Assembly (NCBI GenBank): GCA_900473045.1
Contig: UCKS01000014.1
Coordinates: 39,192-103,191, forward strand
Origin: Hyphomicrobiales bacterium
Lineage (GTDB): Bacteria; Pseudomonadota; Alphaproteobacteria; Rhizobiales; Rhizobiaceae
DNA length: 64,000 nucleotides
Direction of reading: 5' to 3'
Shown here: positions 35,651 to 53,314 of the stretch, piece by piece
Position numbering within the stretch: position 1 is the stretch's first letter
How the letters are laid out: each line of letters starts with the position of its first letter
Notes under the pieces: generated by a model
The model's input: only the letters and a program-made list of their open reading frames with translations
The model's database searches: none
Told to the model about the DNA's origin: nothing
Made by a program: the position numbers and the translations under genes

Positions 35651-38600
35651 ATGGCACAGGCGCTTGTCGAACTTGTTCGCTTTTCACCCGATTCCGCGTT
35701 GACCGCTGTCTGCGAGCACGATGGTGAGCGGTTTACGGTTCAGGAAATACTTGCCGAGACCGCTGGCGCCAGGGCTACTCTGGCGTTGGACGGGGTCCTG
35801 CCGTTCATTCCGGCACGATTGATCAATGACAATCGCCTCAAGACGCCAGCGGAAGTCGCGGACGACCTGCGCGGCGCATACGCCGCTCTGCGTTCCAGAT
35901 TGTCAAAACTGGAGATCAGACGCAGCGCCGCGTTTTTTGGTCTCCAGCTTGCCGCAGATGCGGGCCTGAGCCTTTCGCTTGTCCTTCCGGAACTGCCGGG
36001 CCAGACGGCGAACCTGCAACCTGTGGGCCTGAAGGCATCCGTCGATCTGACCGCATCGGCGGGTCCCGTGCGTGGCCGCATCGGCCTCCAGATAGAAATC
36101 ACCGCAACAGGCCCGAAGATAGCGGGAGAATTCGGTTGGCCGACCTTCGGGTTCTCTTTCCCAGGCCTCGATTTCGGATCGCTTTCGTTGCCGGATATGA
36201 GGTTGACGCTCCCGAACATGCCTGCATGGCTGCCCGGGTCGAAAATCAGCTGGGCCAGCAATCCTGTCCTTCGTATCGATACATCAGCCGGCTTAAGCTT
36301 CTACATCGACGATGGCGGCAGCCCCGGGCTGCCCGTATCCGCCGCCATCGAAGTCGAGAACGCACCTTTATTGAAATTGGAAGCATTTCAGGTCGGCGGT
36401 CCCGTCAATGCCTTGACCGTGACCGTCTCGCTTTCGGTCGCGGCGATGAACGGGTCCCTGCCGAACGGACGAAAGTCCATCGGGCCTGTCAATGTGACAT
36501 GGACGGACGTTAGACTGGAGGCAACCCTGACAGGGTCAGTCCTGGTGGTAACGACGGTCGTACCGTCTCTGACCGTCGAGGGATCGAATTGCGTCATCGA
36601 GGTCACCTTCGATCTCGTCAGCGAGTATGATCTGAGGCTCGGCTCGAACAGGCAGGATGTGCGCAATTTCGCGGTCCGGCAACCGACGGGAAGCCAGATC
36701 GCACAAATTATTGTCAAGGAACTGCGCGGTCTCACGCGGGTAATCGTTCCGATCGAGCTGCCGAACGTCGGAATGCCCGACCCGTTGCTGAGAGCGCTCG
36801 GCGGACTGGTGGAAGATGTCATGAAATGGCTTGGGACCGGCGCCGCAGCGATCGGGCAGGGGCTCGTCGGCCTCGCCCGCGGCGTCGCTGATCTCGGCAA
36901 ACGGCTCTTCGACGCGCTGGGTAACCTCGGAACCGCGGGTGCCGGCATCCTGCTGGAAATCCGTTGGGACAGCACGGCAGGAAAAATAAGACAGATCATC
37001 CTGTCCCGAAAGGGCGCTGACATACCCGCAGGAGAGATCAGCCGCGGCGAGCTGACCGTCAAATTCTCAGGGGGAAGCGGGCCATTTCTTGTCTTCGACT
37101 TGATCGACAACTGGAGTGCGATCGTCGTTGCTCCTTCGGCAGATGTCTTCGAGGCAAGCCTTTCGACCGATCTTTGGCTGACCGGAGACATGGGAAACTC
37201 ACCGGCGCGAGGCGACGATGCGGAACCGCTTTTGACAGTGAAGGCGGTCGTGCGGCCACCCGCCGCAGGACAGCCGTCTTCTCCGGTGGCAATTGCCATG
37301 CTGCAACATGGCCAGGCCCGTTTCTTTCGCGGTATGGGGGCGGGGCCCGCCGAGCCGATCGCCGGCGGCATAAGTATCGCGGCTCCATTCATTCCTGGAC
37401 CGCTGCCCATAGACGTCAATTTCGATATTCACCTCAACGAAAACAAGATCGCATCGATCTTCCCGAGCGGGAGAGGCAGTTCCGTCGGCGGGAAGTCGAA
37501 TTCGCCGACCGTCAAGATACTGAGATGGCGGCAGGTTTCGGCCCAGGGCAGTTCGCGCCAATTCGACCTGGACCTGGAAGTCGATCCGCGTCTGGGAGGG
37601 CGCACGCTTAAGCCTACGATCAGGGCGACCCTCGATATGGAGCGATTTGCACTGCAATTCGACGGCGTGGACATTCCCATCGACGTTGCGGACACCGTTG
37701 ATGTCTTCGGAGCCAGGTTGAGCATTGATCCGCCCAATGGCGGGTTGTTGCTACGTCTTTCCGAAGCACCTTCTCTTCGACTGGGAAAGGGTACACGCGC
37801 CGTCTTGGCATTCGATCAGATCGGCAGCGGCGAGGAGGCCCTGAGCTTCGAAGCGACAGGGGAGGCGGGCTTTGCTCTGGGGGCAGCCGGGCTCGATCTC
37901 GTGGCCCGCGTCGTAGACCGTCCGATACGGTTACGAGGACTGGACACACCGTTCCGCTTCACAAGTGGAGATCTGCGCGTCGAGCGGGGGCGGTTGCTTT
38001 CCGCCGCAGTTGTCGGCAGCGGGGCTCTTCCACCGGCCTTGTTGGGCGAAGCCAGAATCGATGTCGGCATTCAAATCGGTCAGGACGAGAACACGAATGC
38101 CCTTACCATCAAAAGCGCAACCGCTCGCCTTGAGCGGGCAGGCGAGCCGCTTGTCTGCGAAGGCACGAGGTTCCACTTCGAATTGACGCATGTCGGCCTG
38201 GGCTTCAAGCTCATCGACAGTCAGGTCCATTTCTACGGCGAGATCACCGGCAGCGCCACGTTTCGCCCAAATCCCGGAGAGCTTGCCGGCGGACTTCTGT
38301 CGCGATTGCCCGAAGCAAGGATCAATCTCGATCGCGCGCCTATCGCCGGAGACGGACGCGCACTCGCCAGGGCCATAAGCTTCCAGGTCCCCGTCGAACC
38401 GCCGGCCCGAGCGAATCTGTTCAATCTTTTCGATTTCGAGCTGCGAGGGGTCGGTTTTCATCCGTCCTACAATGGCTGGAGCGACAACCCGCCGGCGCTG
38501 TCGCTATCCGGCCAGGTCCGCTTCACGGACGCTTTTGACGTCATCGAGCCAAGTTTCGAATTCCACAAGATGTGGATCACGCGTCCCGAAAGTGGCAAGA

Positions 38601-41600
38601 CTCTGCCTCGGATCAGACTGGATGGCCTTGGCGTCGGGTTGCGCATCGGTGCGATGGGCGAGTTCGCAGCCACGGCGGTCGCGGTCGATGGATCGCTTCC
38701 AAGCTTGTATGCCCCTGATGTGTTGCCGGCAAACGTCACCGCCCACGGCTTCCTCGCATCAGGTCGCCTTATGCTGAAAGGCTGGGCGGCGATGTCGGGC
38801 GCGGCCGGGTTTCTGGAACTCGAGCGTTCGGAGGAACCGGGAAAGCGTAGATTGACGTTTTTCGTCTACGCGCAGCAGGAGCAGCTCGCCGAACCGATAC
38901 CGACGCCGGTCGGTACCTTGTATCTTCGGGAAGTCGGATTTGGGCTGGGTTATCGGTTCACGCTTGCGGGACTGGCACAGACGGACGCCGTTTCTGACCC
39001 CAGGGATCTTATCAAGGTCCTCGATCCCATATCAAAGCGCCAAGGCGATCTCGGGAGTTTCCCGGCCTGGCAACCCGAGCTCGAAGGCGATCGAATAACG
39101 CTGGCGATGCGCGCCCTGTTCAGCGTCACGACGGCATCGTCGCCGACAGTCTACGATGCCGAGCAGGAAAAGGAACTCGACAATCCGGTGCTGTTCGACG
39201 TCGTTGCGGCGCTGCGCAGTGACCTGACATTCCTTCTGTCGGCGCGGGCATGGATCGCCGTCAACTATGCGGATTGGAGAAGCGTCAAGAACGACTGGCG
39301 TGAAAAGCCGCTCCTGCGCGGCTATCTCTACATCTCGGCTCCGAAGAAGACCTTCCTCGGGCGGTTCCTTTCCGATCGGACAGGCCATATCGGCCAGCAT
39401 CCGAAACTGCCTGAACCGCTGACCAAGGCTCTGACCAACGTCCAGTTCAGCTCGACACTCTATATCACGCCCGGTCTCTACCATCACGAGTTCGGCTGGC
39501 CCTATGAACTGAAGTTCGACCTCGGGAGCCCGGATGACAAATTCTATGCCAGCCTGAGCGGCGGCATGGTCACGAGGATTGAAGATGGCGCGATACTGAA
39601 CGGCATTGCGTTTGCCGCACGCGGACATGTCAAGGTAGGGGGACGCGGGGGCGGCAGTGTCGGCGCTTCGGCGGAAGCAACGGCCGAATTCTCGCTGGAC
39701 AGCAAGTTCATCGCCTACATCAGTGCGCAGCGACCCGTTGAAAGCCTGTTCTACGGTCGTATCCAGCTTGCCATCAGCCTCGAATTTTCAATCCGGTTCT
39801 GGGTGGACCTGCAATTCTTCAAGGCAGAGGCGAGCTGGAGCGAGCGGGTCGATGTCGAGGTCGATCTTGAAGTGGCCATAGGTCCGCGTGGGCTTGGTGC
39901 TCACGCGCGAGCATCGATCTCTATCCGACGCTTTGGCAGGGGACTTAGGCTTGGCGTTTCAGTCGGCATGAACGAGGGCATGCTCAACAGTGCACGAGCG
40001 CGTGTCGAACGTTTCATGGCGCTCGGGCTCGGAGCCACGGTTCCCGACCCTGCAAGCGGCCTTGCGCCACTGCCCGAACCGGCTCGAAAAGCAAGAGCCG
40101 ACGCTGGAGACACGGCGCTTGAGAATCTTGCGGATCGCCGAGATGCCCTTCCCCTGCCCGAAACGGAAGACGCTGGTCCACAGAAACCCGCGGGACCGCC
40201 CGAGATCGGGGATCTCGTTACGGGTTGCGATTTCTGGGCTATCGTCATTCCGGTAGCCGGCAGAGAGGATCGCGCGATCCTTCAGTTCGTTCCACGCGAC
40301 GGCGACCTTGTGCAAAGGGCGACGTTGTTCGAAACCCGACCGCATGGAGACTTTTTCGTTTCACCCTATCCGGTCGCAAGTGGACAACACATCACCGACG
40401 GGCACGAGTATATATTCGATGCACCGGATGATATCCTGCACGAACTCGGCTTTCTTCCGGGCCAGAGGACCAGGAAGCCGGACTGGGCACGTCAGATCGA
40501 CGCGAAGTCCGGAGGGACCGTCGGCGATCTCGTGTCTGCCGGTTTCCTTTTCCCGGTATCGGGGCGTTTTACCCAGCCAAAGGCGAACCTGCCGAACGAT
40601 GTCACGCCCAAGGAAAAGGCCGATACGCTGGGATGCCTGGAGGCTCGCGGCAGTTTGATCGGTCTGGTCTGCGACCGCGCCCATCAGCTGGCGCAGGCGT
40701 TGACGGAGGACAGAAACGCTGCTGCTCCGGATGTGATCGATCCACGCTGGTTCGGCCTCACTTATGTGATTGGCAACGATGGTATCGCCTTGACCGATAC
40801 GCTCGAAAAGCTCTTTCCGACAAGGGGCGGCAGTCCGCGCCCGGCGGCATTCACTATTGCGAAGTCCGACGATATCGGGGGCGGCGCACCCTCAAGCCAC
40901 CAGGTCGCACTGTTCAATCCTGTCGAGCGCTGGTTTGAAAATGCTCAGCCGCAACCAACTGACCCCAGGGCTTTCGTCAGGAACAGGGTAATCTGGCTGG
41001 ATTGGGACCTCGAGCCGAACTGGGGTGCGTCGGACACGCATTTCGACGATCCTGAAAGCCATCTTCTCCACTACGTCGTGCAACGCCACATACAGGTCGG
41101 CAGTGAAGTGAAGCGGCAATTCCATACCAGCTGGTTCGCCAAACGTGGCGAGGTGGCCGAGCTGATCGAGACCGAGCAGGGCGATAAATTCCAGGCCCTC
41201 GATCGACTAGCAGATCTTCCGGGCGAGCTTCGACAGGCACTGTTGTTCTTCCAAACCTACCGCGCCGATCAGGACGTCAATGCTGCACAGCATGACGAAT
41301 ATCGCAAGCACTTCGAAGTGTGGCAGCAGACATTCTCAACGGACGAGCCGATCAGACTGGTGTATTCCGTCATCGCGATCGACAACGGCAATACCCGGAC
41401 AAGCCCCTCAGTTCCATTCTTCTTCAAGATCGGGCTTCCGCCCAAACCTCGAGCCCTGCCGCTTACCAGGAGTTCCATTGAATTCTCCTACGTCCCGGTT
41501 CAAGGTCAGACGTTCCGGTTCCCGACGACGGGCGCCGAACTGCCGGCGAAACTCTCCATGTTTCTCCAGACCGCCCCTGGCCACGACGAACCGATCCTGC

Positions 41601-44600
41601 CGGACATCGAGCTCTACTTCGATACCGACGACGGCGAGCGCTCAGGTATCTACGGCGCGGATCTTCTTGACGCGCAACGCCATTACAAGAAGCGCATTGA
41701 CGCTGACGAAACCGCGCCGACTGCGATTATCTCCCGTTCCAGGCCACGTGGCGCCACCGTGCCGGTTTATGTCTATGTGGTCGACCCCGAACGGCCCGAT
41801 CCTGCACTGCAACCCGAGCTTTTCTATTGTTCCTCGCTCGAGCTTGAAGAGCTTGCGGTCTTGCCTGGTCGATCGACCCAGATATTTGCGAGACTGAAGC
41901 GATCGGATGCGGAACTGAGAGACCCGCAATGGACGCTGTGCGACCTGAAGCTCCGGATCGCGCGGCGCCCGAACAACATCGCCAAGATGCCGCTCGACAA
42001 CCAGCGCGACGATTTCATCGCGCCGGTAGCCGAGTTTGAAATGCCGCGTGTACGAGACGCCCGCCTTCTGGGATCCAGTGCTCTCGCCGCCCAGAAAGGC
42101 CTGCTTCACAAACTGGTTCCGCGCCCCGATTCCTCATGGACACAAAGATCATCCATGCTGCAGACGGACCATGAAAATCGAAGTGCCGTCCGCTTGATAT
42201 GGCAGGCGCGGCCGTCGACCTTGTGCGACAACTCACCGGCGTTTGCGGACCTGATCGGCGGTTTCGACGTCTTCACGTCATCGCGCCACCGTGAACCACC
42301 GCAGAAAGATCCGTTGACGGCAATGGAACTGGCCCGCATTGCGCGGCCACTTGGGCGCATTCTGGTGAAGCCGCGCGCATTGCTGAGCAGCGAACCTGCA
42401 CTGGTCGAAGACTTTTCCAAACTCCAAGTCTTCTATCCCAGCGAGACCATGAGGTCTGGATGGAATGGATGGTATTCCTCGGCCGAATCCCGATTGATCT
42501 GGCCGGAGCGCACGCAGCGGCGGGCGCTTTGCCTGGTGCCGGACGAGGGATTGATCGGAGAAATCTTCGGCAGCGGTCGGCCGACCGATCTCGAACTGCG
42601 ATTCGTCGAGTTCAAAGGTGAGGGGAGCAGCCTCGGAAGGCCAGCCAGCCTTTCTCTTCAGGCAATCGGCGACCTCAAGCCGGAGGGAAGCCTTTCAGGC
42701 CCGGACGTTGACGGATGGCAGAAAATCCACCTCGACGAGATCAGGCCCGCCGCGCTTCGGGGACTGCTGCAGCAGCTCAACCGACCAGTTGTTCCCGAGG
42801 GGGCCCCTCCGGAACGAGGCACGCTGCAGGTTCGCTACACGTCTGGAGGCAAGCAGAGATCGTCGGAGAACAATGTGGGGCTGGCCAGCGACCTCCACCC
42901 GCTGCTGACCGACATGCTTGATCTGCTGAGGTATGAGAAGGAGAGCTTCGAAACCGGTAACGGATATCGCCGGTTTGAACCGATTCTGGAAGGCGCGCCG
43001 GCTCCACAACAGGGTATCGTTCAAAAGAGCGACGCGGGCTCGGAGACAGGGAAGTTGCCGGCTGCCCAACTGCTCAGCGACACGGCGCCTGAGCGCGACA
43101 AGGCGGGATGGTCCGCATTGCGCCAGCTGGGTCTGGCGACAGGTTTCCGGCTCTGGGACACGGAGACCGACGACTGGGTAAACCCGCGCGACATGGACTC
43201 TCATTTCAACTGGGCTTGGGCACATGCCGTCGAGCGGAATTTCATAGAGACGTGGACATTCGGGGCACCATTTCTCGAGCAATTCTTCGACCCGGAAGAA
43301 GTGTATGTCCTCGGTGGCGAAGATCGAACCAACTATCCGAGATTTACCGAACCGAGGGGCCTTCCGCTTCTACAACTGTCGCTGAGGCCGATCATCGATC
43401 GCTTGCAGCAGAAAGTCTTCTGGAGACGGCCAGAGCACATCTACTACGTGGAAATAAAACCAAAAGCTGCGGTGACAATCACTGCTGCGGCAATCAAGGC
43501 AGCGTTCGAATGCGAGGCGCTGATAGAATTCCGCACCAGTAAAACGGGATCCTACGGCGATCCCGGGGTGTGGGTTGGTGAGAACCTTACAGGAGACGAC
43601 CGGTTCCGGCCAGTGGCAGAATACACTGTTCCGGCGGCACCGGAGGCGCCATCTGCAATCTCAAGAATCGTTCTACTCGACCAGCAACTCTCTCCGGATC
43701 AAATCGTCGCCAAATTAAGAGCGAGCTTCAATACGGTCGACCTGCCGATCTCGGTCATCACATGGTCGCCTGCCGATCCGATCGCCGACAAGCCAGCCAT
43801 CAATCCTTACGTGTTCTTTGATGCGCTGCCGGCTGCGATCATCAACCGCGTGGAAAGGGCGAAGCTCTTCGAAAATGGGCATCAACGGCTGAAGAAGCTT
43901 GCAAGCAATCGGTATGGCGGCTGGACTGGGACCGTGGATGAAACGGCGGCGATCCAGTTGTGGGAGCGTCGGTTCTTCGAATACGGTCTGGGCGGCGCCT
44001 TGGCAGTTGACCGTGGCGCGCGCTTTGCGAGCATGGGCGCTGCCGCCGCGACGATCGACGCACCCGCCTCGCTGCGTCGAGCACCCGACGAAAGAGGGCG
44101 CGTCAGCGTTCTGCTTCTCGACAACAGTGGGCTTGGGTCGTGGCGGCGTTTCTATGTTCGTCCGTTCGGCCGGTACGACCACCTCGCGGAAGCAAGCGGT
44201 TGGCCCTGTTCCGACCCGAACCTCCTGACAGAGGCGGATCTCGCCAACGGCATGCTTTCGAAGCCCTGGATTGATGTCACACTGGATCGAACCCGCGACG
44301 TCGCCAAACCGGTGCTCCTCGCCAGCGCATATGCGATCGAGGCAAAGGCTCTCGTCGCGGTTGTCGCGCATTCCGACGAGGAAATCCTGGCCGCCGCAAA
44401 CATTCCCCAGGCGGGGGCCCGCCAGATTGGTTCATCCGATATCGGATGGGAGCATCAACTGGGAACGGTGGCCCACAAATGGGCCCAAGGTTTTCTTCCC
44501 GGCGTGCCGAAAATTCCCGAGCTCCAGGCGAAGCTCCTGGAGCCCCAGGACGCGGGACCGCTGCTCGAATGGATCATCAAGCAGGCGACCCCGCCCGAGA

Positions 44601-45226
44601 AACTCGGGAGCCCGGGCGTCGCTGGGGCCGGTCTTCCCGACCTATGGCGAGGCGCGAATGCTGTCGCCGCCTATGATCTCCCGTATCTGTTCGACTACGA
44701 GGTTCTTCTAGCGAACGGAGCTGGCGCAGCGATCTCCCCTCACACGCGCTCGGCGCTTCCCAGTCCCCGAGCGATGTCGCAGATCCGCTGGCAACACGAT
44801 GCGACGCTGGAGCGTACCGACAACGAGGTGGTGATCGAGTTCCCGCTCGCCCGTTATGTTGATTGCATGGAAGAGGGAAGCCGAGATGCCTGGTACGAGC
44901 CGGCACACGAATCTGCAGCCCTCTTCGAGCTTCCTGATCCCGCCATCATCTACCGGTTCCAAATGAAGACGGCCGCCGGCGATATCCGGTCGCCTGAATT
45001 CGATCTCGAAGCCGACGCGGAAGACGCCGTCTACCGCCTTACGGTCACAGGCCGAATGTTCAGATTGAAAAGCCTGGGCCGGCCACGCAAAACCGGGCGC
45101 GACTGGTCCATCCGGCTCGTCCTTGAGCGCATGAGCACCGACATCGCCGGCGACGTCCTCCTCGAAGCCGTTCCAGTCCGAAACATCGAGCAAATGTCCC
45201 CCGTCGAAATAAGGAACGTACCATGA
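35651..45226 (+). CDS. giant protein of unknown function (3191 residues)
   Basis: A single uninterrupted 9.6-kb gene. No signal peptide, no clear TM helix, no nucleotide-binding, protease, glycosidase or NRPS/PKS motif is visible. The sequence is mostly short alternating hydrophobic/polar stretches as in beta-strands. Landmarks: a Leu/Pro beta-repeat-like part (about 120-330); one amphipathic, glycine-rich helical stretch at about 381-435 (GAAAIGQGLVGLARGVADLG); a glycine-rich turn GGRGGGSVGA near 1330 followed by aromatic beta-strands (ISLEFSIRFWVDLQFF) reminiscent of DUF6603-type proteins; a proline/charged linker near 1465-1520; fibronectin-III-like pairs (LLHYVVQRH... RLVYSVIAIDNG) near 1790-1925; and further beta-rich modules to the end. 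It overlaps the next giant gene by ATGA. Function unknown; a scaffold or exported structural/toxin-like protein are guesses. Confidence 0.85.
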   Translation: MAQALVELVRFSPDSALTAVCEHDGERFTVQEILAETAGARATLALDGVLPFIPARLINDNRLKTPAEVADDLRGAYAALRSRLSKLEIRRSAAFFGLQLAADAGLSLSLVLPELPGQTANLQPVGLKASVDLTASAGPVRGRIGLQIEITATGPKIAGEFGWPTFGFSFPGLDFGSLSLPDMRLTLPNMPAWLPGSKISWASNPVLRIDTSAGLSFYIDDGGSPGLPVSAAIEVENAPLLKLEAFQVGGPVNALTVTVSLSVAAMNGSLPNGRKSIGPVNVTWTDVRLEATLTGSVLVVTTVVPSLTVEGSNCVIEVTFDLVSEYDLRLGSNRQDVRNFAVRQPTGSQIAQIIVKELRGLTRVIVPIELPNVGMPDPLLRALGGLVEDVMKWLGTGAAAIGQGLVGLARGVADLGKRLFDALGNLGTAGAGILLEIRWDSTAGKIRQIILSRKGADIPAGEISRGELTVKFSGGSGPFLVFDLIDNWSAIVVAPSADVFEASLSTDLWLTGDMGNSPARGDDAEPLLTVKAVVRPPAAGQPSSPVAIAMLQHGQARFFRGMGAGPAEPIAGGISIAAPFIPGPLPIDVNFDIHLNENKIASIFPSGRGSSVGGKSNSPTVKILRWRQVSAQGSSRQFDLDLEVDPRLGGRTLKPTIRATLDMERFALQFDGVDIPIDVADTVDVFGARLSIDPPNGGLLLRLSEAPSLRLGKGTRAVLAFDQIGSGEEALSFEATGEAGFALGAAGLDLVARVVDRPIRLRGLDTPFRFTSGDLRVERGRLLSAAVVGSGALPPALLGEARIDVGIQIGQDENTNALTIKSATARLERAGEPLVCEGTRFHFELTHVGLGFKLIDSQVHFYGEITGSATFRPNPGELAGGLLSRLPEARINLDRAPIAGDGRALARAISFQVPVEPPARANLFNLFDFELRGVGFHPSYNGWSDNPPALSLSGQVRFTDAFDVIEPSFEFHKMWITRPESGKTLPRIRLDGLGVGLRIGAMGEFAATAVAVDGSLPSLYAPDVLPANVTAHGFLASGRLMLKGWAAMSGAAGFLELERSEEPGKRRLTFFVYAQQEQLAEPIPTPVGTLYLREVGFGLGYRFTLAGLAQTDAVSDPRDLIKVLDPISKRQGDLGSFPAWQPELEGDRITLAMRALFSVTTASSPTVYDAEQEKELDNPVLFDVVAALRSDLTFLLSARAWIAVNYADWRSVKNDWREKPLLRGYLYISAPKKTFLGRFLSDRTGHIGQHPKLPEPLTKALTNVQFSSTLYITPGLYHHEFGWPYELKFDLGSPDDKFYASLSGGMVTRIEDGAILNGIAFAARGHVKVGGRGGGSVGASAEATAEFSLDSKFIAYISAQRPVESLFYGRIQLAISLEFSIRFWVDLQFFKAEASWSERVDVEVDLEVAIGPRGLGAHARASISIRRFGRGLRLGVSVGMNEGMLNSARARVERFMALGLGATVPDPASGLAPLPEPARKARADAGDTALENLADRRDALPLPETEDAGPQKPAGPPEIGDLVTGCDFWAIVIPVAGREDRAILQFVPRDGDLVQRATLFETRPHGDFFVSPYPVASGQHITDGHEYIFDAPDDILHELGFLPGQRTRKPDWARQIDAKSGGTVGDLVSAGFLFPVSGRFTQPKANLPNDVTPKEKADTLGCLEARGSLIGLVCDRAHQLAQALTEDRNAAAPDVIDPRWFGLTYVIGNDGIALTDTLEKLFPTRGGSPRPAAFTIAKSDDIGGGAPSSHQVALFNPVERWFENAQPQPTDPRAFVRNRVIWLDWDLEPNWGASDTHFDDPESHLLHYVVQRHIQVGSEVKRQFHTSWFAKRGEVAELIETEQGDKFQALDRLADLPGELRQALLFFQTYRADQDVNAAQHDEYRKHFEVWQQTFSTDEPIRLVYSVIAIDNGNTRTSPSVPFFFKIGLPPKPRALPLTRSSIEFSYVPVQGQTFRFPTTGAELPAKLSMFLQTAPGHDEPILPDIELYFDTDDGERSGIYGADLLDAQRHYKKRIDADETAPTAIISRSRPRGATVPVYVYVVDPERPDPALQPELFYCSSLELEELAVLPGRSTQIFARLKRSDAELRDPQWTLCDLKLRIARRPNNIAKMPLDNQRDDFIAPVAEFEMPRVRDARLLGSSALAAQKGLLHKLVPRPDSSWTQRSSMLQTDHENRSAVRLIWQARPSTLCDNSPAFADLIGGFDVFTSSRHREPPQKDPLTAMELARIARPLGRILVKPRALLSSEPALVEDFSKLQVFYPSETMRSGWNGWYSSAESRLIWPERTQRRALCLVPDEGLIGEIFGSGRPTDLELRFVEFKGEGSSLGRPASLSLQAIGDLKPEGSLSGPDVDGWQKIHLDEIRPAALRGLLQQLNRPVVPEGAPPERGTLQVRYTSGGKQRSSENNVGLASDLHPLLTDMLDLLRYEKESFETGNGYRRFEPILEGAPAPQQGIVQKSDAGSETGKLPAAQLLSDTAPERDKAGWSALRQLGLATGFRLWDTETDDWVNPRDMDSHFNWAWAHAVERNFIETWTFGAPFLEQFFDPEEVYVLGGEDRTNYPRFTEPRGLPLLQLSLRPIIDRLQQKVFWRRPEHIYYVEIKPKAAVTITAAAIKAAFECEALIEFRTSKTGSYGDPGVWVGENLTGDDRFRPVAEYTVPAAPEAPSAISRIVLLDQQLSPDQIVAKLRASFNTVDLPISVITWSPADPIADKPAINPYVFFDALPAAIINRVERAKLFENGHQRLKKLASNRYGGWTGTVDETAAIQLWERRFFEYGLGGALAVDRGARFASMGAAAATIDAPASLRRAPDERGRVSVLLLDNSGLGSWRRFYVRPFGRYDHLAEASGWPCSDPNLLTEADLANGMLSKPWIDVTLDRTRDVAKPVLLASAYAIEAKALVAVVAHSDEEILAAANIPQAGARQIGSSDIGWEHQLGTVAHKWAQGFLPGVPKIPELQAKLLEPQDAGPLLEWIIKQATPPEKLGSPGVAGAGLPDLWRGANAVAAYDLPYLFDYEVLLANGAGAAISPHTRSALPSPRAMSQIRWQHDATLERTDNEVVIEFPLARYVDCMEEGSRDAWYEPAHESAALFELPDPAIIYRFQMKTAAGDIRSPEFDLEADAEDAVYRLTVTGRMFRLKSLGRPRKTGRDWSIRLVLERMSTDIAGDVLLEAVPVRNIEQMSPVEIRNVP

Positions 45227-48200
45227 GCCAGCTGCGCGCAGTGAGTATCCTCGCTTCGGCGACGCGTTCGCCGTTGTGGCAAGCGGACGTGGCCGTGGCC
45301 TATGCCGGGCGTGACCCCGACCCGAACAATCCGCGCCCGGTCGTTCAGAAAACGCAGGCCTTGCGCGTCCTGGTGCAGTCGGCAGTGGCCGAAGACCTTG
45401 TCATCGCTGGTCAACACTATGCCTTTCATAAACCAAGGTTGCTTGTGGCGGCGGTGGAAGCAAAAGGCGACGAAGACAGTAACTGGGCCAAGTTGACTGT
45501 CGGCCTCGGCGGTGCGAACGCGGAAAAAATCGTCCTCATGGACACCCGTGCAGACGTGAACGATATTGTCGTGACGCCGACCAGACCTGGGGACGCCTGG
45601 TCTGTCCACAAGGACGAGATCGAGGTCCCTGATTTCGCACTGGTGGCGGGGCAGATCCGGACCTGGTTGCGGTTGAGGACGTTGGGGAATGGTCAAGCTC
45701 CGTCGCAAGAACCGTGGTTCGGTTACCGCAACATCAACGGTGGCGACCGGTTGTTCTGCAGCTCGTCCAACAACGACGGACTTGAAGTGTTTACGCGCCA
45801 CGATGGAGGCGTGTCCTGGCTCCCTGTCGTGCTGAGCGGGGAGGGGATTACGTTCCTGGCCAAGGTCTCGGATCCGCGACAAGCTTTCACGGGAAAAGAG
45901 GAAGCGATCTGGGCCTGGGTCCAGATTTCGCAGGCAGTGGATGGGGCGGAGCCACGCTACCTCGTCAGGTTTGTCGAGGCCTGCGCGGCACCCGCCCCCG
46001 CGACGGACTGGTCGTTTCCCTGTCCCTTACTTGACCAAAATTATCCGCTCGACGTCGAGCGGCGGTTCCACGAACTGTTCCAGGCCACCCGGCTCAATTA
46101 CGATATTCGCGTCGATTTCGACGATCGCCCAAGCGTTCCGCCATTTCGATGGGAAATGAAGTTGCGCGAGGGGAGCTCGAGACCGCTTTTCCCAGAAATG
46201 CAGTCCGAGTGGTCGGTCCAGTTCGATTCGGCACTGTTTCGGATCAACATTCTATCCACCATCGACGGGATTGCGAGCACAGCTTCCGTGCGATGTGACA
46301 AGGCAAGGTTGAACATCGTGCCTGCTGGATCAAGGAGCCTCAGTAACCTGACTTTGGAGAGCGCGTCCGACGCAAGCAATACAAGACAATTGCAGTTGTC
46401 CCGAAGGGCGTCTCAGGTGTCGTGGTCGGCGTCAAACCCTGGTCGCGCCACATTCGCGACCGGGCGGCTGGAACTGGAGGAAGTTTCAAAGCGTCTGAAG
46501 GCGATGTACGGTGCGGCCGGCATCTACAATGACGATCAAGACGGCCCTGGTCAGGCGTTTCTCCCAGTCCGGCACGGCTGGATGCAGCTACCCCTGTCGC
46601 AATCGACGCCCGGCCGCGACTTTGCTGGTCTCAAAGATCCAGTAATGATCGGAGATGCCGCTTTCATACTGGATCAGGATCGCGGTTTTGCGATCGAAAT
46701 AGGCGAGGCGAGTGCAGGCAAGCTCGTCCTGGCAATCGGCCAGAACAAATCCGACGCGTGCCCAAGGATCGACCTTGCGTTCGACGATATCAGCGGCAGA
46801 TTAAGGGGCCTCGTGCATGTGGCCGACTGCTCCCCGGCCAACGGAGAAATCCTGCCGACCCTGCGGCGAGGCGCGACGCGGGAGTGGCCGGTCCGATTTG
46901 GGGCAGGCCCAGGGGAGGGCTTCATCATGGCCCCAACCAATATTCTAAAGCGCGAGGTGCAGATCGATACGAGCCCAAAGGAGAATGCAGCGATCGAGCG
47001 GGGTGGAGTTGCGTGGTTGAGAGCGGGCGCATGGATCTCGACAATCAACCTTGCCCAAAGCACGGGAAGCGGTCTTCCCGTCGCGGCGCGCAGCTATGTT
47101 CCCCGCAGGTTGAAGCGCACCAGCAAGCTGCGATGGGATGCCGCGAGCGTTTTGCCGACGGTTGACCAAAGCGCGCTCGGCGATGTCTGGGAGATCTGGG
47201 AAGGCGCTCCCGGTGCGACCCAGATTCTGCCGTCGCTGGCTGGGATCGAACGCCATGGCCTTCTAGAGGAGTTCACCTACACGCTTCGTCACGACCTGCC
47301 GCCGCTCGACGATCTGAATGCCGGGATGGAACTCGATGACACGCCCATGCTTCTGCTGGGCGAGAAGGCCGATAACGCGAGAGCACCCGCGGCCCTTGCG
47401 ACGGCAGTTGCGCCAAATCGCCTGATAGAGGCCTGGCACAAGATCCGAAACAATGCGCGTTTGACAGAAACGCGTTTGCGGACCGCTTTCGCGAGTGCCG
47501 CATCTGATTCAAAGGTGGACGTAGGTGGCCTCGCGGAGCCCTTCACCTGGTCTCAGGTCAAATTTCAGTTCGACCAGAACAACGAGCACGGTCTGCCCCT
47601 TGGTGCATTCACGCTCGACGGGGAGCGCTATGAGGGTGACGGAGCTCTGGCGGGTGTGAATTCGCCTGCGCTGCAGCTTGAACACGATGGGCACAAACTC
47701 AAACTCCCGGTGACGGGCAACGCAACGCCCCGCTGGCGCGCGTCACGATCAAGATTGCTTCACGACGTTGCCGGAATGGGCATGGACCAGCGGCCAAGCC
47801 TTGCCAGGCCGGTTGAGGTGCTGGGTTCGGCGACGACCAAGGTCGTTCTCAAGACCTTGCCCGATCCGGTCTTGTTCCGCGAGGGTGTAAATTTCTGGTT
47901 CCGCGATCTTCCCCTGACGCAAGCAGGAGTATTCGATGGCGAAGATGGGCCAGACCAGCTGGGCCCGGCGACCGACAGGTGGTCTCAGCAAAGCTTTGCG
48001 CGCAGTCTTTACGAATGGCGGATCTGGTCGACCGACTCCAACTCGCAGACAAGCGGGGACATACCGCTCTCGCTCGGCTTTGTGGCACGTCCGCTTCGGC
48101 TGCGCCGGGTCGAAACAGCATCCGGGAGGCCTTCCCTTGTGGAGATCATCGCTTCCGTCATCGCCCCGCTGTCGCTTGATGCCAGCGGGGAGAGCGAAGC

Positions 48201-51200
48201 GGGAACAACCGCTCCGGCCCGTAATCTGGTCCTCCTCAGTTATACCCTTGCCAAGGGGAAAGGGTACGTTCTCAAGGTCTCCCGCATCAGGATCGAAGAT
48301 GGCCAGGTTGTTCCCGTCGACACAGCAGGGAACGGGGACAGGAGCTTCGTTTCCTTCGACATAGCTCCCGCAATATCGCTCCGAAGATCGGAAGAACAAG
48401 GTGTTGCGCGTCCCGCTGTCCTCCGACTGAAATTCAGGGACAACGGTGAAATCGACGACGCGAAACTGTCGATTACGCTGTTTGGACAGAGACTGGAGTT
48501 CGAGCCGTCTGGATGGGGCGATGGTCCCGATGAATCATCATTCGATTTCAGAATCGTCGGTTCGGGAGAACCCGGCAAGCTCGATTTTACGCAGTTCGAG
48601 TTGCGCTGGTCCAAGAGTCCAGATCGTCCTGCTCCACGCCCGGAGCTTCACGCTCGGCCCTTCCTTAGAATTCCCTTCAAGGTCGCAGACAAGCGCGATG
48701 CGCAGATCACGATAAGTCTCTCTGACGGTTCGATCGGATGGTTTGGAACGAGCATTGACGGAGTTCTGGTGCATCTGTCCGTCGACGATCCCGAAATCCG
48801 GCTCGAACCCGGACACGTGAGAATCTGGAACAGCCCGATCCGGGGGCTGGTATTCGATCAGGCGACGGCATCCGGACTGCTATGCCTCGCCCAGGACCGA
48901 ACCGTAACAGGGCTGTTTCAGCTGGAGGCATCGCGGACCTCTCGGGGAAAGGACATCTTCTCATCCCGGCTGCGCCACAGCTTCCTTTTTTCCGAGAAAA
49001 TCTGGAAAACCACGCTTGATCTTGACCTTGAAGGGGAGGGGGAGAGCAGGCTTGAGTGGCCCCTTGACGTTATACCGTTGACCGACAGCCATCCGGAGAC
49101 GGAGGCTGGCCGACCATTCACCGTCAAGATCAGCGCGGGGCAGGCGCTGACCCATTTCGTGCGGTGTACCGTCGAGTGTGCGCGCGTTCCGCTCGAGGTT
49201 CTGACGGGGGACGGTGTCCTGCAGCAGCCTTGGTACCTGCCTATACGCGTACAACATCGTCTGGAAGGCGGTGATGGCAGCCAGGCGACATGGACGACCC
49301 TGGACGAGGCGTGTCTGGCCGATCTCGAGAAGCTGACATCGCCGCGACCGACGGTCTATGGCTTCGCGGCCCGGTACAGGGGGTCCTATCGGGGCAAGAC
49401 AGCGAGCGGTCCACCAGAGAGGATCGGCGGCGGCCTCTTCGAAAGAGCACTCGCGGCCGCGGGCTTTCCCGACAGCTTGGTGCTCGAAGAACTTCGCGGA
49501 AAGAAGAGCGTGTCCGGCCTGGTGCTGACGGGCGCCGGCACCACGCTTGTTCAGCTCGGCGACAGGGTCGGAAATGGCGAGGCACCCGACAATCCGATCG
49601 GAGAAGCATCAATACTGCTAGCCATGCCATGGCTGATCGGGATCGAAGACGCATCGCTGGGGCCCTTGCAACGGCTCAGACAGGCGCCAACCAGTGGCAC
49701 CAGAGAATGGTCGACGGCCTGGTTCGATAGCCGAGCGCCGCGTTTGACCGCCTCGGCGCGCGTCGTTCCTCTGGCCCTGGGAAGGCCGTCCTCGGCCATC
49801 ATGGCCGCGCAGTTGTCGCGACGTCTCACCGATGTCGTCGACGAATCCCTCGCGTCCGTCGAGCAGCCTTTCTTTGAGACAACGGACAAATTCAAATTGT
49901 CCGAAGCCCCTCTCTTCATGCGATCCGTCGTCGTGCTCAGCAGATACTGGAGCGGCCTTTCAGCGATCGGAGACCTGCAGGCCCGAATTTTTCAGCCCAT
50001 CGTTCGCGGGGACGGAACGGCGATCCTCTTCGCCCCTACCTTGAAATCAACGTCTAGAAGGGCGCAGCGGAAGACGCGGGCAATCGGTGTGCATCCGAAC
50101 GGGGTCGTCTTTACCGAATTAAGAACCGATCTTGGCCTGGAGGCAGCTGACGTTACTTCAAGCGGATTGATGCGCACCTTGCGCGACTCGCTTGATCCGG
50201 AAGCACTCCTGTTCGGTATCGTAGGCGTCGAGGATGACACTGGAGCGAACCTTGGCAATGGCCCCTGGGAGGGGTTGACGTTCTCACCTGTCATGGTCGG
50301 AAACAGCCGCCAACGGCCGTCGCCGAACGCCTTCGGTATCCACGATGAAACCGACGAATTAGTTGCCGCGTCGTCGCTTGGTTGGCCGGAACCACCGCTC
50401 GTGGGCGAGCCCCCCCGGGCCATTGCACTCGGCGACAACAAACCGTTTCAGAGTGCGGATGCTGCGCTGGCCGGAAGATTTGCGAGCTATTCGGTGGACG
50501 CCGGGGCCAATGCGGCAGGCAGTCCCTGGCTGACGCATCATCATCCGGTCGTTTTTGCGATGGCTGCAGTTCCAGCGGCTTCGGGGTCGGCGCCGCGGCA
50601 TCAGGATGTCGTCCCCCGCCGGCCGCGGCTTCCGCTTGTCGATCATCCCCCGACGATCGTGCCGGGCCGCTTCGCGATCGCCACCATGGGCCGTAGGCCG
50701 GGGACGGTTTATGCGGATGTCGTCGCATTGAAGTCCGCCGGTACCGCAATTTCGACCGTCGAGGGGGTTTCGCTGGCGTATCGGGCGACACTCCACCCCG
50801 TGGCAGCTGGACAGGATCGGATGCCGCGCGCTACGGCTTTTCCAGCGAATGTCATCGATCTGGACTGGCGCCGCGAGACGTTCGTGGTCGGGAAGGATCG
50901 CAAGTGCCGGCTCGATCAGGTCCCTGCAGTCTCATTCAGAACCTATCCCCCGACCGATAACGGAGGCAGGAACCCAGGGCCGGACAAGCTGGTCACATTC
51001 CGGCTCAGGACATCGTCACTGGCACTGGCCAGCGCCACCGAAATCGAACTGATCATCGACGGCCCGCTGCCTTCGGAGGGATGGGCGCCTTACGAATGGC
51101 ATGAATTCCGGTTTCGCGTCGGCGACAGGTACTGGCCACTGGGCCGCTACGTGCAGCGTGGCCCGGGGCATATATCCCTGGCGATAACCCCGGTGCAATC

Positions 51201-52125
51201 CGAGGAAGTCCTGGAAGCGACGCGTCGTGCGACCGGAGACACGATCATTGCCTGTGAGCTTCAACTCGCAGCGAAGCCGCCGAATGCAAGCGGATTGACG
51301 GCCGCTCCCAGCCTGTTGCTGAGATTACCGATCGCCATTGCTGAACACGATCAGCCGCGACTTGATATCAGCCAGTCAACTGTGACGTTCGGTGATCCGG
51401 CCTATGATCGGATGCTTTCGAGCATGACCGTCTCGGACACGCGCAGAGCAGGGCAATCGCTCGTGGTTCTGGCTTCTGACCGAGAAGCCTACGATCGATC
51501 GACACCCATTCTTTTTGGTCTCGCCAGGCGGGAACCGAATGGCTCTGTCACCTGGCCGGTTTTCGACTTCACGATAAGCTGGACCCGCGACGGGGTCAGC
51601 AAACCGCCGTCCAGTCCGTTCACCTCTTCCGGCATCACGGCTCTGACGCTCGACGAGATATCACAAAGACTAGACGTGCCCGCCCTTGCGCCCGGCGACA
51701 GACTTGGCATCTCGGCAACCTACACGGACCCGGCGACCGCGGCGCCCATCGAGCTGGCCTTGCAAATCGTGGTCTCGCGAGAACCAGTCGTGCCGCCGGC
51801 GCCTGCGATATATCACCTGATAACACGCCATGGCTCGGCGCTGCCAGACGCGGCGACGGCCCTGTCGGCAAGCGGACCGCGTCCCTCGATCATCGAATAT
51901 GGTTCGCTGGAGCAGGATCTGTTGAGCGGCTATGTCAGGCGCAGGGGATTGTTCACGTGGTATTTCACACCCGACGTCGATCCGCAGTTTGATCGGTTCG
52001 GCTATCTGATCAAGATGGATCGGTCCGGTGCTGCTCAGATGCCGAAGCGGGTCGAGGATTTCGAGCCGGCGCAGGAGATCTCGGTGGCGATACCCATCGA
52101 AGCCACCAGAACCGCATGGAGATAA
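45223..52125 (+). CDS. giant protein of unknown function (2300 residues)
   Basis: A 6.9-kb uninterrupted gene whose ATG is the ATGA overlap with the stop of the 3191-residue gene, so the two are translationally coupled and probably form one complex. No signal peptide, TM helix or recognised catalytic motif. Composition is again beta-rich with many Trp/Phe/Asp-Gly turns (VSWLPVVLSGEGITFLAKV, LDLDLEGEGESRLEWPLDV). The N-terminal 120 residues and the segment around 1560-1680 (SRYWSGLSAIGDLQARIFQP, TILFAPTLKS-like) look like separate folded units; a Pro/Arg-rich low-complexity linker (PRHQDVVPRRPRLPLVDHPP) is near 1790; the C-terminus ends with an immunoglobulin-like stretch (VTWPVFDFTISWTRDG to AIYHLITRHG). 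I do not recognise the family. Confidence 0.85.
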   Translation: MSQLRAVSILASATRSPLWQADVAVAYAGRDPDPNNPRPVVQKTQALRVLVQSAVAEDLVIAGQHYAFHKPRLLVAAVEAKGDEDSNWAKLTVGLGGANAEKIVLMDTRADVNDIVVTPTRPGDAWSVHKDEIEVPDFALVAGQIRTWLRLRTLGNGQAPSQEPWFGYRNINGGDRLFCSSSNNDGLEVFTRHDGGVSWLPVVLSGEGITFLAKVSDPRQAFTGKEEAIWAWVQISQAVDGAEPRYLVRFVEACAAPAPATDWSFPCPLLDQNYPLDVERRFHELFQATRLNYDIRVDFDDRPSVPPFRWEMKLREGSSRPLFPEMQSEWSVQFDSALFRINILSTIDGIASTASVRCDKARLNIVPAGSRSLSNLTLESASDASNTRQLQLSRRASQVSWSASNPGRATFATGRLELEEVSKRLKAMYGAAGIYNDDQDGPGQAFLPVRHGWMQLPLSQSTPGRDFAGLKDPVMIGDAAFILDQDRGFAIEIGEASAGKLVLAIGQNKSDACPRIDLAFDDISGRLRGLVHVADCSPANGEILPTLRRGATREWPVRFGAGPGEGFIMAPTNILKREVQIDTSPKENAAIERGGVAWLRAGAWISTINLAQSTGSGLPVAARSYVPRRLKRTSKLRWDAASVLPTVDQSALGDVWEIWEGAPGATQILPSLAGIERHGLLEEFTYTLRHDLPPLDDLNAGMELDDTPMLLLGEKADNARAPAALATAVAPNRLIEAWHKIRNNARLTETRLRTAFASAASDSKVDVGGLAEPFTWSQVKFQFDQNNEHGLPLGAFTLDGERYEGDGALAGVNSPALQLEHDGHKLKLPVTGNATPRWRASRSRLLHDVAGMGMDQRPSLARPVEVLGSATTKVVLKTLPDPVLFREGVNFWFRDLPLTQAGVFDGEDGPDQLGPATDRWSQQSFARSLYEWRIWSTDSNSQTSGDIPLSLGFVARPLRLRRVETASGRPSLVEIIASVIAPLSLDASGESEAGTTAPARNLVLLSYTLAKGKGYVLKVSRIRIEDGQVVPVDTAGNGDRSFVSFDIAPAISLRRSEEQGVARPAVLRLKFRDNGEIDDAKLSITLFGQRLEFEPSGWGDGPDESSFDFRIVGSGEPGKLDFTQFELRWSKSPDRPAPRPELHARPFLRIPFKVADKRDAQITISLSDGSIGWFGTSIDGVLVHLSVDDPEIRLEPGHVRIWNSPIRGLVFDQATASGLLCLAQDRTVTGLFQLEASRTSRGKDIFSSRLRHSFLFSEKIWKTTLDLDLEGEGESRLEWPLDVIPLTDSHPETEAGRPFTVKISAGQALTHFVRCTVECARVPLEVLTGDGVLQQPWYLPIRVQHRLEGGDGSQATWTTLDEACLADLEKLTSPRPTVYGFAARYRGSYRGKTASGPPERIGGGLFERALAAAGFPDSLVLEELRGKKSVSGLVLTGAGTTLVQLGDRVGNGEAPDNPIGEASILLAMPWLIGIEDASLGPLQRLRQAPTSGTREWSTAWFDSRAPRLTASARVVPLALGRPSSAIMAAQLSRRLTDVVDESLASVEQPFFETTDKFKLSEAPLFMRSVVVLSRYWSGLSAIGDLQARIFQPIVRGDGTAILFAPTLKSTSRRAQRKTRAIGVHPNGVVFTELRTDLGLEAADVTSSGLMRTLRDSLDPEALLFGIVGVEDDTGANLGNGPWEGLTFSPVMVGNSRQRPSPNAFGIHDETDELVAASSLGWPEPPLVGEPPRAIALGDNKPFQSADAALAGRFASYSVDAGANAAGSPWLTHHHPVVFAMAAVPAASGSAPRHQDVVPRRPRLPLVDHPPTIVPGRFAIATMGRRPGTVYADVVALKSAGTAISTVEGVSLAYRATLHPVAAGQDRMPRATAFPANVIDLDWRRETFVVGKDRKCRLDQVPAVSFRTYPPTDNGGRNPGPDKLVTFRLRTSSLALASATEIELIIDGPLPSEGWAPYEWHEFRFRVGDRYWPLGRYVQRGPGHISLAITPVQSEEVLEATRRATGDTIIACELQLAAKPPNASGLTAAPSLLLRLPIAIAEHDQPRLDISQSTVTFGDPAYDRMLSSMTVSDTRRAGQSLVVLASDREAYDRSTPILFGLARREPNGSVTWPVFDFTISWTRDGVSKPPSSPFTSSGITALTLDEISQRLDVPALAPGDRLGISATYTDPATAAPIELALQIVVSREPVVPPAPAIYHLITRHGSALPDAATALSASGPRPSIIEYGSLEQDLLSGYVRRRGLFTWYFTPDVDPQFDRFGYLIKMDRSGAAQMPKRVEDFEPAQEISVAIPIEATRTAWR

Positions 52126-52336: not shown

Positions 52337-53110
52337 ATGTTCTTTAAATTTGGAGTAGTCTTGGTCGCGTCGTTTATGGCGATCGACGTCGCGCACGCTG
52401 ATCTGTCACTTCGTCAGATTGAGCGATCTGAATCCCTCGCACCCTTTATAGTTGGGGGCGCTCCCGCTGATCCGGCATTGTGGCCGGCGACGTTGGTTTT
52501 TGATACTCCTGCGCGTTGCACGGCTACGGTCGTCGGGCCGAAAGCCTTGATAACGGCCGCGCATTGTTTAGACGCGAGCAACACCGGTAGCGCCATCCTT
52601 GCAGGTCAAACGATTAGTTTGACCTGCAAAGTTAATCCAAGCTACCCCAATGACCAAACTGCCGACGTGGCGATGTGCGCTACCTCGGCAACGATTACGG
52701 CACCGGGGCTGAAATACGAAGTTCTGAACAATGAACCGGGGTTGGTCAAAGTCAAGGACAGCGTGGTTTTGCTTGGTTTTGGCTGCACAACTATCGGCGG
52801 AAACGTCAGCGATGTCCTGTTCGTCGGCAGCGCAGCCATAAAAAGGACCCCTTTGAACTTTCAGCGGTATGAAGCAGAGGGGGGAGCACAGATTTGCGAA
52901 GGTGACAGCGGTGGCGCCGGTTATCGCGTGCTAAGTTCCTCGAAGAGAGTGGTTTTCGCTGTGAACGAGTCTCGAGCGCCCCACGAACCCCTCTCATATT
53001 TGAGTAGCGTAACAACGCCCGATAACATGACATTTATCAGATCGTGGGCCGTCTCAACAGGGAACAGTTTATGCGGCTTTGACACGGGCGTGTCAGGGTG
53101 CCGCCACTAG
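52337..53110 (+). CDS. secreted trypsin-like serine protease (S1 family)
   Basis: 257 residues with a signal peptide (FFKFGVVLVASFMAIDVAHA). The mature enzyme starts after a short pro-region at IVGG (PFIVGGAPADPALWPATLVF), the classical activation site. Catalytic triad: His in ALITAAHCLDAS, Asp in QTADVAMC, Ser in CEGDSGGAGYRV. Six or more cysteines suggest disulphides. Exported to periplasm or outside. GGAGGAGG upstream of the ATG is a strong ribosome site. It follows the giant genes in the same direction and could process one of their products; that is inference. Base composition is visibly less GC-rich than the giant genes. Confidence 0.9.
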   Translation: MFFKFGVVLVASFMAIDVAHADLSLRQIERSESLAPFIVGGAPADPALWPATLVFDTPARCTATVVGPKALITAAHCLDASNTGSAILAGQTISLTCKVNPSYPNDQTADVAMCATSATITAPGLKYEVLNNEPGLVKVKDSVVLLGFGCTTIGGNVSDVLFVGSAAIKRTPLNFQRYEAEGGAQICEGDSGGAGYRVLSSSKRVVFAVNESRAPHEPLSYLSSVTTPDNMTFIRSWAVSTGNSLCGFDTGVSGCRH

Positions 53111-53314
53111 CGTTAGTCTATTACAAGGCTTGCTGAAGTTGGACTGCTTAGGCGGCCTTTTTTGGCGCGCCTGTCCAGCGACTCGATCGTGAGGATAGGT
53201 GCGTCGCGAAGCCACGTTGGAAGCGGTCATCAGGTTGAGTTCGATTCCCAGGCGAATTTGTCGTAGCGGATGCCGCGAGCTATGTGGAATCTCGAACCAA
53301 CGGGGGAGGTTGAT

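What the first reader, a model, noticed from the sequence alone, without database searches (positions are those of the whole stretch)
35651..52125. Two giant, translationally coupled proteins of unknown function (3191 and 2300 residues)
Seen: 16.5 kb of uninterrupted coding sequence in two genes joined by an ATGA overlap, no signal peptide, TM helix or known catalytic motif, beta-rich with fibronectin-like and aromatic strands. Known: coupled genes usually make partners of one complex; the sizes are far above normal for plasmid cargo, and NRPS/PKS, RTX and Rhs hallmarks are missing. Inferred: a two-component giant structural or exported system, perhaps with the secreted trypsin-like protease and membrane protein downstream.
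Basis: partly seen in the sequence, partly recalled or inferred. Interest (0 to 1): 0.85.

Follow-up and report, generated by a model that had tools for sequence, protein, structure and literature searches.

The report
Giant protein pair with swappable enzyme
Two giant bacterial proteins that match no known family are encoded side by side in 46 of 47 gene neighbourhoods examined, next to a gene that changes from strain to strain and in about a quarter of them encodes a predicted cell-wall enzyme; the pair is likely a new kind of carrier that would deliver such enzymes against other bacteria.

Summary
In detail: two intact genes, A (3191 aa) and B (2300 aa), joined by ATGA, on a repABC/Trb-type plasmid contig. 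Neither matches Pfam or NCBIfam, and profiles of parts of them match no solved structure convincingly. They belong to a sparse but widespread family (Proteobacteria, actinomycetes, cyanobacteria, Chloroflexi, Bacteroidota, Planctomycetota, Verrucomicrobia). A and B are adjacent in 46 of 47 loci and co-vary (r = 0.984). No other neighbour family was shared by more than 7 of 48 loci. Instead, the adjacent gene varies: Tae4, Amidase_6, M23, YkuD, Tlde1, phage lysozyme, PLD, PhoD, papain-like C70, glutaminase or, in the window, a trypsin-family protein (20 of 47 loci have such an enzyme). Two plasmids with 97.5% identical A carry YkuD in one, M23 in the other. A SLOG-Tae4 gene is 64% identical between loci whose A is 34% identical. 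Four of 8 Tae4 domains in 35 genomes sit in the first gene after B. Domains encoded separately after B in one locus are fused to B's C-terminus in others. Core models are amphipathic antiparallel beta-sheets. I read it as a giant vehicle with exchangeable envelope-attacking cargo; delivery is inferred. Defence or envelope-opening roles remain possible.

The parts
35651..45226 (+). Giant protein A, 3191 aa
   Evidence: no Pfam/NCBIfam match
37748..40000 (+). Most conserved core of A (about residues 700-1450): run of antiparallel beta-strands, the last seven 11-22 residues long with one strongly hydrophobic face
   Evidence: conservation; model of residues 361-1560 (mean pLDDT 72.9, pTM 0.46); face hydropathy
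45223..45226 (+). ATGA overlap of the stop of A and the start of B
   Evidence: A-B gap is -4 in 7 of 36 pairs and between -4 and 289 bp in all 36
45223..52125 (+). Giant protein B, 2300 aa, partner of A
48013..49644 (+). Beta-strand run in B (about residues 931-1474), predicted antiparallel, partly amphipathic
   Evidence: no solid PDB match
52012..52044 (+). Conserved C-terminal motif of B (KMDRSGAAQMP in the window); extra domains are fused just after it in some relatives
52337..53110 (+). Trypsin-family protein with signal-peptide-like N-terminus, 211 bp after B: the window's presumed cargo
   Evidence: Pfam Trypsin E 2.7e-12; TAAHC and GDSGG in the alignment
53270..54148 (+). 292-aa membrane protein (about 7 hydrophobic segments), role unknown
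   Evidence: no Pfam or PHROG match
34213..35343 (+). RHE_PE00001-family gene upstream of A (DUF1612 + HTH_13)
54746..55315 (+). Partial second copy of the RHE_PE00001-family gene; with 34213-35343 it brackets A, B, trypsin-family gene and membrane-protein gene
   Evidence: direct repeat 34769-35068 / 54741-55040, 300 nt, 84% identical; translation

Best explanation
Genes A and B are the fixed pair of a mobile gene module whose neighbouring gene, often for an enzyme, is swapped from locus to locus, and the A-B complex is likely a large beta-sheet-built vehicle that would hold that enzyme near B's C-terminal end and deliver it to the envelope of another bacterium. Shown here: the pair is conserved and co-varies; the adjacent enzyme differs between near-identical backbones; about a quarter of the loci have a peptidoglycan-acting enzyme family there; small domains are found either as separate genes after B or fused to B's C-terminus. 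Inferred: A and B bind each other and the enzyme; their sheets with one hydrophobic face form a common shell, barrel or groove; the enzyme acts on competitors. In the window the cargo would be the trypsin-family protein at 52337-53110.
For: A-B adjacency in 46 of 47 loci (36 of 37, the exception being a contig that ends inside A; 2 of 2; 8 of 8, B split into two ORFs in two of them; homology of these ten B's checked). A-B distance correlation r = 0.984 over 35 pairs, 0 of 2000 permutations. Cargo swap on a near-constant backbone: R. ruizarguesonis pRlX1 versus R. leguminosarum pRLN3, A 97.5%, B pieces 98-99% and TM-Ig gene 95.7% identical, next gene YkuD versus M23 with no blastp hit at 1e-3 (M23 E 2.4e-19; YkuD E 2.6e-4, just under its cut-off). 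SLOG-Tae4 64% identical over 330 residues where the best segments of A are 34% and of B 25%. Genome-wide control: 4 of 8 Tae4 domains in 35 carrier genomes lie in the first gene after B (0.0023 expected in 2-kb windows), one of the four (G405) unseen before the search; the only Gln_deamidase_2 domain in those 35 genomes lies in the gene after B. A recognised enzyme adjoins the pair in 20 of 47 loci, 11 of them peptidoglycan-acting families. Fusion evidence: a 156-aa C-terminal extension of B in G390/G391 matches a separate gene after B in G391 (67-69%, E 6e-60 to 5e-63); another in B. japonicum p1S06B matches a separate 112-aa ORF of G391 (59%, E 6e-44). Beta-sheet models and one-face hydropathy. 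Eight of 11 plasmid records with A are typed conjugative.
Against: No secretion signal or known export apparatus is tied to A or B. No immunity gene was assigned (I only read the ORF lists). In 27 of 47 loci no recognised enzyme adjoins the pair at E <= 1e-3; several have transposase-like, TonB-receptor-like or metabolic genes there. The Tae4 of G387 and G392 are not independent (A 92.8% identical), and the Tae4 search was prompted by three of its four adjacent hits. A second Tae4 of G395 lies about 9 kb from its B. The same control with Tlde1 gave only the adjacent hit already known, 1 of 21. SLOG and SLATT domains and defence-gene neighbours (Dpd, AbiE, Avs1c, STAND) point to an intracellular conflict system as much as to a weapon. 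The window's trypsin has its own signal-peptide-like start and may not need a carrier. The beta models have modest confidence (pTM 0.46 each); many earlier strands of A and B are only weakly amphipathic.
Confidence: 0.45

Rival explanations
1. Intracellular defence (anti-phage or anti-plasmid) system: A and B form a giant sensor or scaffold and the variable neighbour is an effector that wrecks the own envelope on infection.
For: SLOG cluster-4 domains in four loci (Pfam for G387 and G407, fused to Tae4, and for G586, alone; G392 by 64% identity to G407), SLATT_4 before A and a STAND NTPase after B in G400, defence genes nearby: DpdF/G/H in the window, AbiE in L120 and L123, Avs1c in L121, sparse presence (4 of 297 family genomes, counting the window's own and a fragment).
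Against: No NTPase, nuclease or cyclase family in A or B; cytosolic peptidoglycan enzymes cannot reach their substrate without a membrane breach (established knowledge); defence islands also collect weapons and plasmid cargo.
Confidence: 0.25
2. Envelope-spanning or lysis-released structure: the wall enzyme only opens the producer's own wall so that the giant complex can be assembled across it or let out.
For: Recurrent peptidoglycan enzymes of unrelated families and TM-bearing neighbours (TM-Ig in G390, G391 and L119; TM plus M15-like motif in G396 and G699), as specialised lytic enzymes accompany secretion systems (established knowledge).
Against: Trypsin, glutaminase, PLD, PhoD and C70 neighbours do not open walls; in all five actinomycete loci examined the neighbour is PLD-like.
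Confidence: 0.15
3. Lipid-handling groove: the hydrophobic-faced sheets carry lipid, like bridge-like lipid transfer proteins or apolipoprotein B.
For: Strands A 1298-1440 have one face of mean hydropathy +2.0 to +3.3 and the other -0.7 to -1.3; Foldseek's list for A includes SlpA, ApoB100 and LptD.
Against: TM-scores about 0.1 and rmsd 29-65 A in the 14 rows with E <= 1e-3; no lipid gene is constant beside the pair; no AsmA/TamB family match.
Confidence: 0.08
4. The enzymes are ordinary type VI secretion effectors and A-B is a T6SS accessory.
For: Tae4 is described as a T6SS effector family (Pfam); Tlde1 likewise from recall and the listings.
Against: VipB found in 18 of 40 carrier genomes and not in the window's own genome nor in the five actinomycete genomes (some genomes are incomplete).
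Confidence: 0.02

Closest known systems
T6SS effector modules (Tae4, Tlde1 and similar)
   Same: Some of the same enzyme families appear as the swappable neighbour.
   Different: The module has no T6SS gene in the stretches read, the genome of the window has no VipB match, and the constant part is A-B.
Polymorphic toxins and Tc/RHS toxins
   Same: Large beta-rich carrier with a variable enzymatic end; fusion at a C-terminus (recalled knowledge).
SLOG/SLATT conflict systems (eLife 2020, PMC7159879; passages only)
   Same: SLOG and SLATT domains beside some pairs; [quoted passage not shown]
   Different: The paper's main text does not contain the words 'giant' or 'Tae4', and none of the passages seen describes a pair like A-B.
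Large amphipathic beta-sheet or barrel proteins (SlpA, LptD, FimD usher, porins, ApoB100)

Membership tests
T6SS accessory or effector | Carrier genome has a T6SS sheath (VipB) | tested here: not met
   18 of 40 genomes, not G000; incomplete genomes are a caveat
RHS/Tc toxin | RHS/YD repeats by sequence | tested here: not met
   0 Pfam families at E <= 1 for A and B
RHS/Tc toxin | Cocoon fold | tested here: inconclusive
AsmA/TamB-like lipid transfer | Family sequence match | tested here: not met
   0 Pfam families at E <= 1
AsmA/TamB-like lipid transfer | Continuous hydrophobic groove | tested here: inconclusive
Outer-membrane beta-barrel | Signal peptide and closed barrel | tested here: inconclusive
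Exchangeable-effector system (kind, not family) | Constant backbone with unrelated enzymes at one position | tested here: met
Exchangeable-effector system (kind, not family) | Cognate immunity gene | tested here: inconclusive
   small and membrane ORFs follow some enzymes; none assigned
Exchangeable-effector system (kind, not family) | Delivery and toxicity | not testable with these tools
   needs bench work
Known anti-phage defence system | Match of A or B to a PADLOC model | not tested
   PADLOC was run on eight neighbours, not on A or B

The most novel reading that the evidence does not exclude
A new class of bacterial weapon: a two-protein, about 600-kDa beta-sheet or barrel-like vehicle, unrelated to contractile systems, Tc/RHS toxins or T6SS, that spreads on plasmids and occurs across phyla, loaded at B's C-terminal end with interchangeable peptidoglycan enzymes, proteases, phospholipases or deamidases.
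Probability: 0.38. Interest if true: 0.93.

Novelty: categorically new. Interest (0 to 1): 0.8.

Why it matters
If true, bacteria own a delivery machine built from two giant proteins that has escaped annotation because both halves are called 'hypothetical protein' in every record seen here that names them. The swappable enzymes give a direct handle on its function, and the gene pair can be used to find new wall-acting enzymes. Even under the defence reading, it would be an unusually large two-protein conflict system spanning many phyla.

Tried and rejected
Sequence families: Pfam and NCBIfam and profile searches of the PDB with four sub-alignments gave nothing beyond a weak Ig-like match in B. 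Fold searches: for A only partial barrel-like matches, for B nothing solid. T6SS dependence disfavoured. Fixed protease-plus-membrane-protein partnership not upheld. Neighbours left unidentified: G389 (Pfam, PHROGs; no PDB search), G397 (Pfam, PDB, PHROGs), G398 (Pfam: only amfpi-1 at E 0.09; PHROGs), the B extension of G402 (Pfam: only SapC at E 0.17; PDB: best E 0.27), and the TM plus M15-like protein of G396/G699 (Pfam: G396 only sub-cut-off PpoB2 E 6e-4 and ABA4-like E 0.008; G699 piece none; PDB; PHROGs). Their lysozyme- or M15-like character is my reading of motifs from recall. The Amidase_6-like group had no PDB match. Tlde1 as a control gave only the adjacent hit that prompted it, 1 of 21. 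A third protein search with a B profile returned 5 proteins, two of them new. Literature: five searches (I saw listings and starts of abstracts) and passages of PMC7159879 and PMC12419801 showed no description of this pair; subscription papers and preprints are not held, so this is weak evidence of absence.

Full report
1. What is there. A (35651-45226, 3191 aa) and B (45223-52125, 2300 aa) are intact and overlap by ATGA. Neither has a Pfam or NCBIfam match at E <= 1. The window is G000:C111:39192-103191; the protein table gives 143,614 bases for the contig of A. TrbI, CagE_TrbE_VirB, ParA-type and RepC genes lie in the window (10 window genes scanned), so it is read as a repABC conjugative-type plasmid. 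Downstream lie dpdF, dpdG and dpdH homologues. A 300-nt, 84% direct repeat of an RHE_PE00001-family gene brackets A, B, a trypsin-family gene and a membrane-protein gene, which suggests a unit inserted with a duplicated flank (inference).

2. Distribution. Presence is sparse: 2 of 385 class genomes, the window's own included; 4 of 297 family genomes, the own genome and a 280-aa fragment at E 5e-4 included; 2 of 396 genomes of the phylum of G414 with an actinomycete query, one being G414 itself and one a fragment at E 1e-4. Yet a scan of species genomes found 48 loci in Alpha-, Beta- and Gammaproteobacteria, actinomycetes, cyanobacteria, Chloroflexi, Bacteroidota, Planctomycetota, Verrucomicrobia and others. 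Eleven plasmid records carry A, 8 typed conjugative; no phage record does.

3. A and B are one unit. I read the surroundings of 47 loci: 36 of the 48 loci, the window, two further family genomes (G586, G699), and eight annotated plasmids (pRLN3 is already among the 36). B follows A on the same strand in 36 of the 37 (gaps -4 to 289 bp; the exception, G418, is a contig that ends inside A), in 2 of 2 and in 8 of 8. B is split into two ORFs in two of the eight plasmids, and the called B of G412 is short (944 aa). Homology of these B's rests. Pairwise distances of A and B correlate at r = 0.984 over 35 pairs, 0 of 2000 permutations reaching it; the test does not remove shared species history.

4. 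The neighbour is exchanged. Apart from A and B, no family within the 10-kb flanks was shared by more than 7 loci (the 7-locus one is a 600-aa TM protein). Enzymes recur beside the pair. Peptidoglycan-acting families at E <= 1e-3 or by close similarity: Tae4 in G387, G407, G392 and G405; Amidase_6 in G403, with G388 87% identical to it; Tlde1 in G395, under its cut-off; M23 in G390/pRLN3, second gene after B (the record also names it M23); YkuD in B. japonicum p1S06B and, under its cut-off and as second gene after B, in R. ruizarguesonis; phage lysozyme before A in G410. That is 11 of 47. Other enzyme families: Gln_deamidase_2 in G385, trypsin in the window, C70 in S. chiapasense, PhoD before A in G417, PLD before A in five actinomycete loci (three scanned; all five 61-86% identical to each other). 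Together 20 of 47. Weaker: M23 in G586 (E 0.003), NlpC/Amidase_6 in G386 (E 0.03), PG-binding/M74 in G418 (E 0.02 and 0.08), CHAP in L120, divergent (E 0.03), and motif readings only for G396, G397, G402 and G699. In the rest nothing recognised adjoins; G394, G399 and G419 have transposase-like genes, G393 a TonB-receptor-like gene on the other strand (my reading), and G411 a xanthine-dehydrogenase-type gene upstream.

5. Controls. A search of 35 carrier genomes found 8 Tae4 domains; 4 lie in the first gene after B against 0.0023 expected for 2-kb windows. The search was prompted by three of them, and two of those three sit in loci with 92.8% identical A; the G405 copy was unseen before. One more, in G395, lies about 9 kb beyond B. 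The single Gln_deamidase_2 domain in the same genomes lies after B. Tlde1 gave only the known adjacent hit, 1 of 21. Direct swaps: two Rhizobium plasmids with A 97.5% and TM-Ig 95.7% identical and B pieces 98-99% identical carry unrelated next genes, YkuD and M23; SLOG-Tae4 is 64% identical between G392 and G407 although the best segments of A are 34% and of B 25% identical, and these loci lie in separate well-supported clades of the A tree.

6. Contact point. B ends in a conserved KxDRxGxxQxP-type motif in many members. In G390 and G391 a 156-aa extension follows it; most of it (141 aa) matches a separate gene after B in G391 (67-69%). In B. japonicum p1S06B a different domain follows it and matches a separate 112-aa ORF of G391 (59%, E 6e-44). 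Fused in one genome and separate in another is classical evidence of physical association (established reasoning), so downstream products likely dock at B's end. What these two domains do is unknown; they are not the enzymes themselves by any match found.

8. Reading. The best fit is a giant vehicle with interchangeable enzyme cargo aimed at envelopes. It is not tied to T6SS: VipB in 18 of 40 genomes, none in the window's genome. SLOG, SLATT and STAND neighbours and nearby defence genes keep a defence role open at 0.25; an envelope-opening role is given 0.15.

Noticed in passing
window 57334-64000: dpdF, dpdG and dpdH homologues (PADLOC E 8e-212, 3e-6, 1e-261): start of a 7-deazapurine DNA modification (Dpd) island right after the giant module.
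   Followed up: partly
window 34769-35068 and 54741-55040: 300-nt, 84% direct repeat of an RHE_PE00001-family gene bracketing the module, possibly the scar of its insertion.
   Followed up: partly
window 55585-56697 (-): RelA/SpoT-domain protein (Pfam E 5e-15), weakly matching PADLOC PDC-S33 (E 4e-7).
   Followed up: no
L094:1590-2195 and the B C-termini of L010 and L011: A 141-aa domain occurs both fused to B and as a separate gene in the same locus (G391); function unknown.
   Followed up: partly
L118:4757-14584: C25 cysteine peptidase, large ATP-binding and CHAT-domain genes near the pair in Sinorhizobium terangae: looks like a further conflict system.
   Followed up: no
L117:2015-14200: S8 peptidase, PLD-like and M20-type genes upstream of the pair on Mesorhizobium plasmid pOM4.
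   Followed up: no
L069:562-1068 and L102:11711-15760: SLATT_4 gene 60 bp before A and a 1349-aa nSTAND/S1 protein 280 bp after B in Pseudomonas japonica.
   Followed up: partly
L008:7108-8946, L009:8074-9861, L013:7869-9794 and relatives: About 600-aa multi-TM protein without Pfam match next to A in seven loci (mostly divergent), possibly an immunity or anchor protein.
   Followed up: partly
L051:5143-6570: A second, short A-like ORF (475 aa) on another contig of the Pseudomonas rubra genome that also has a full A.
   Followed up: no
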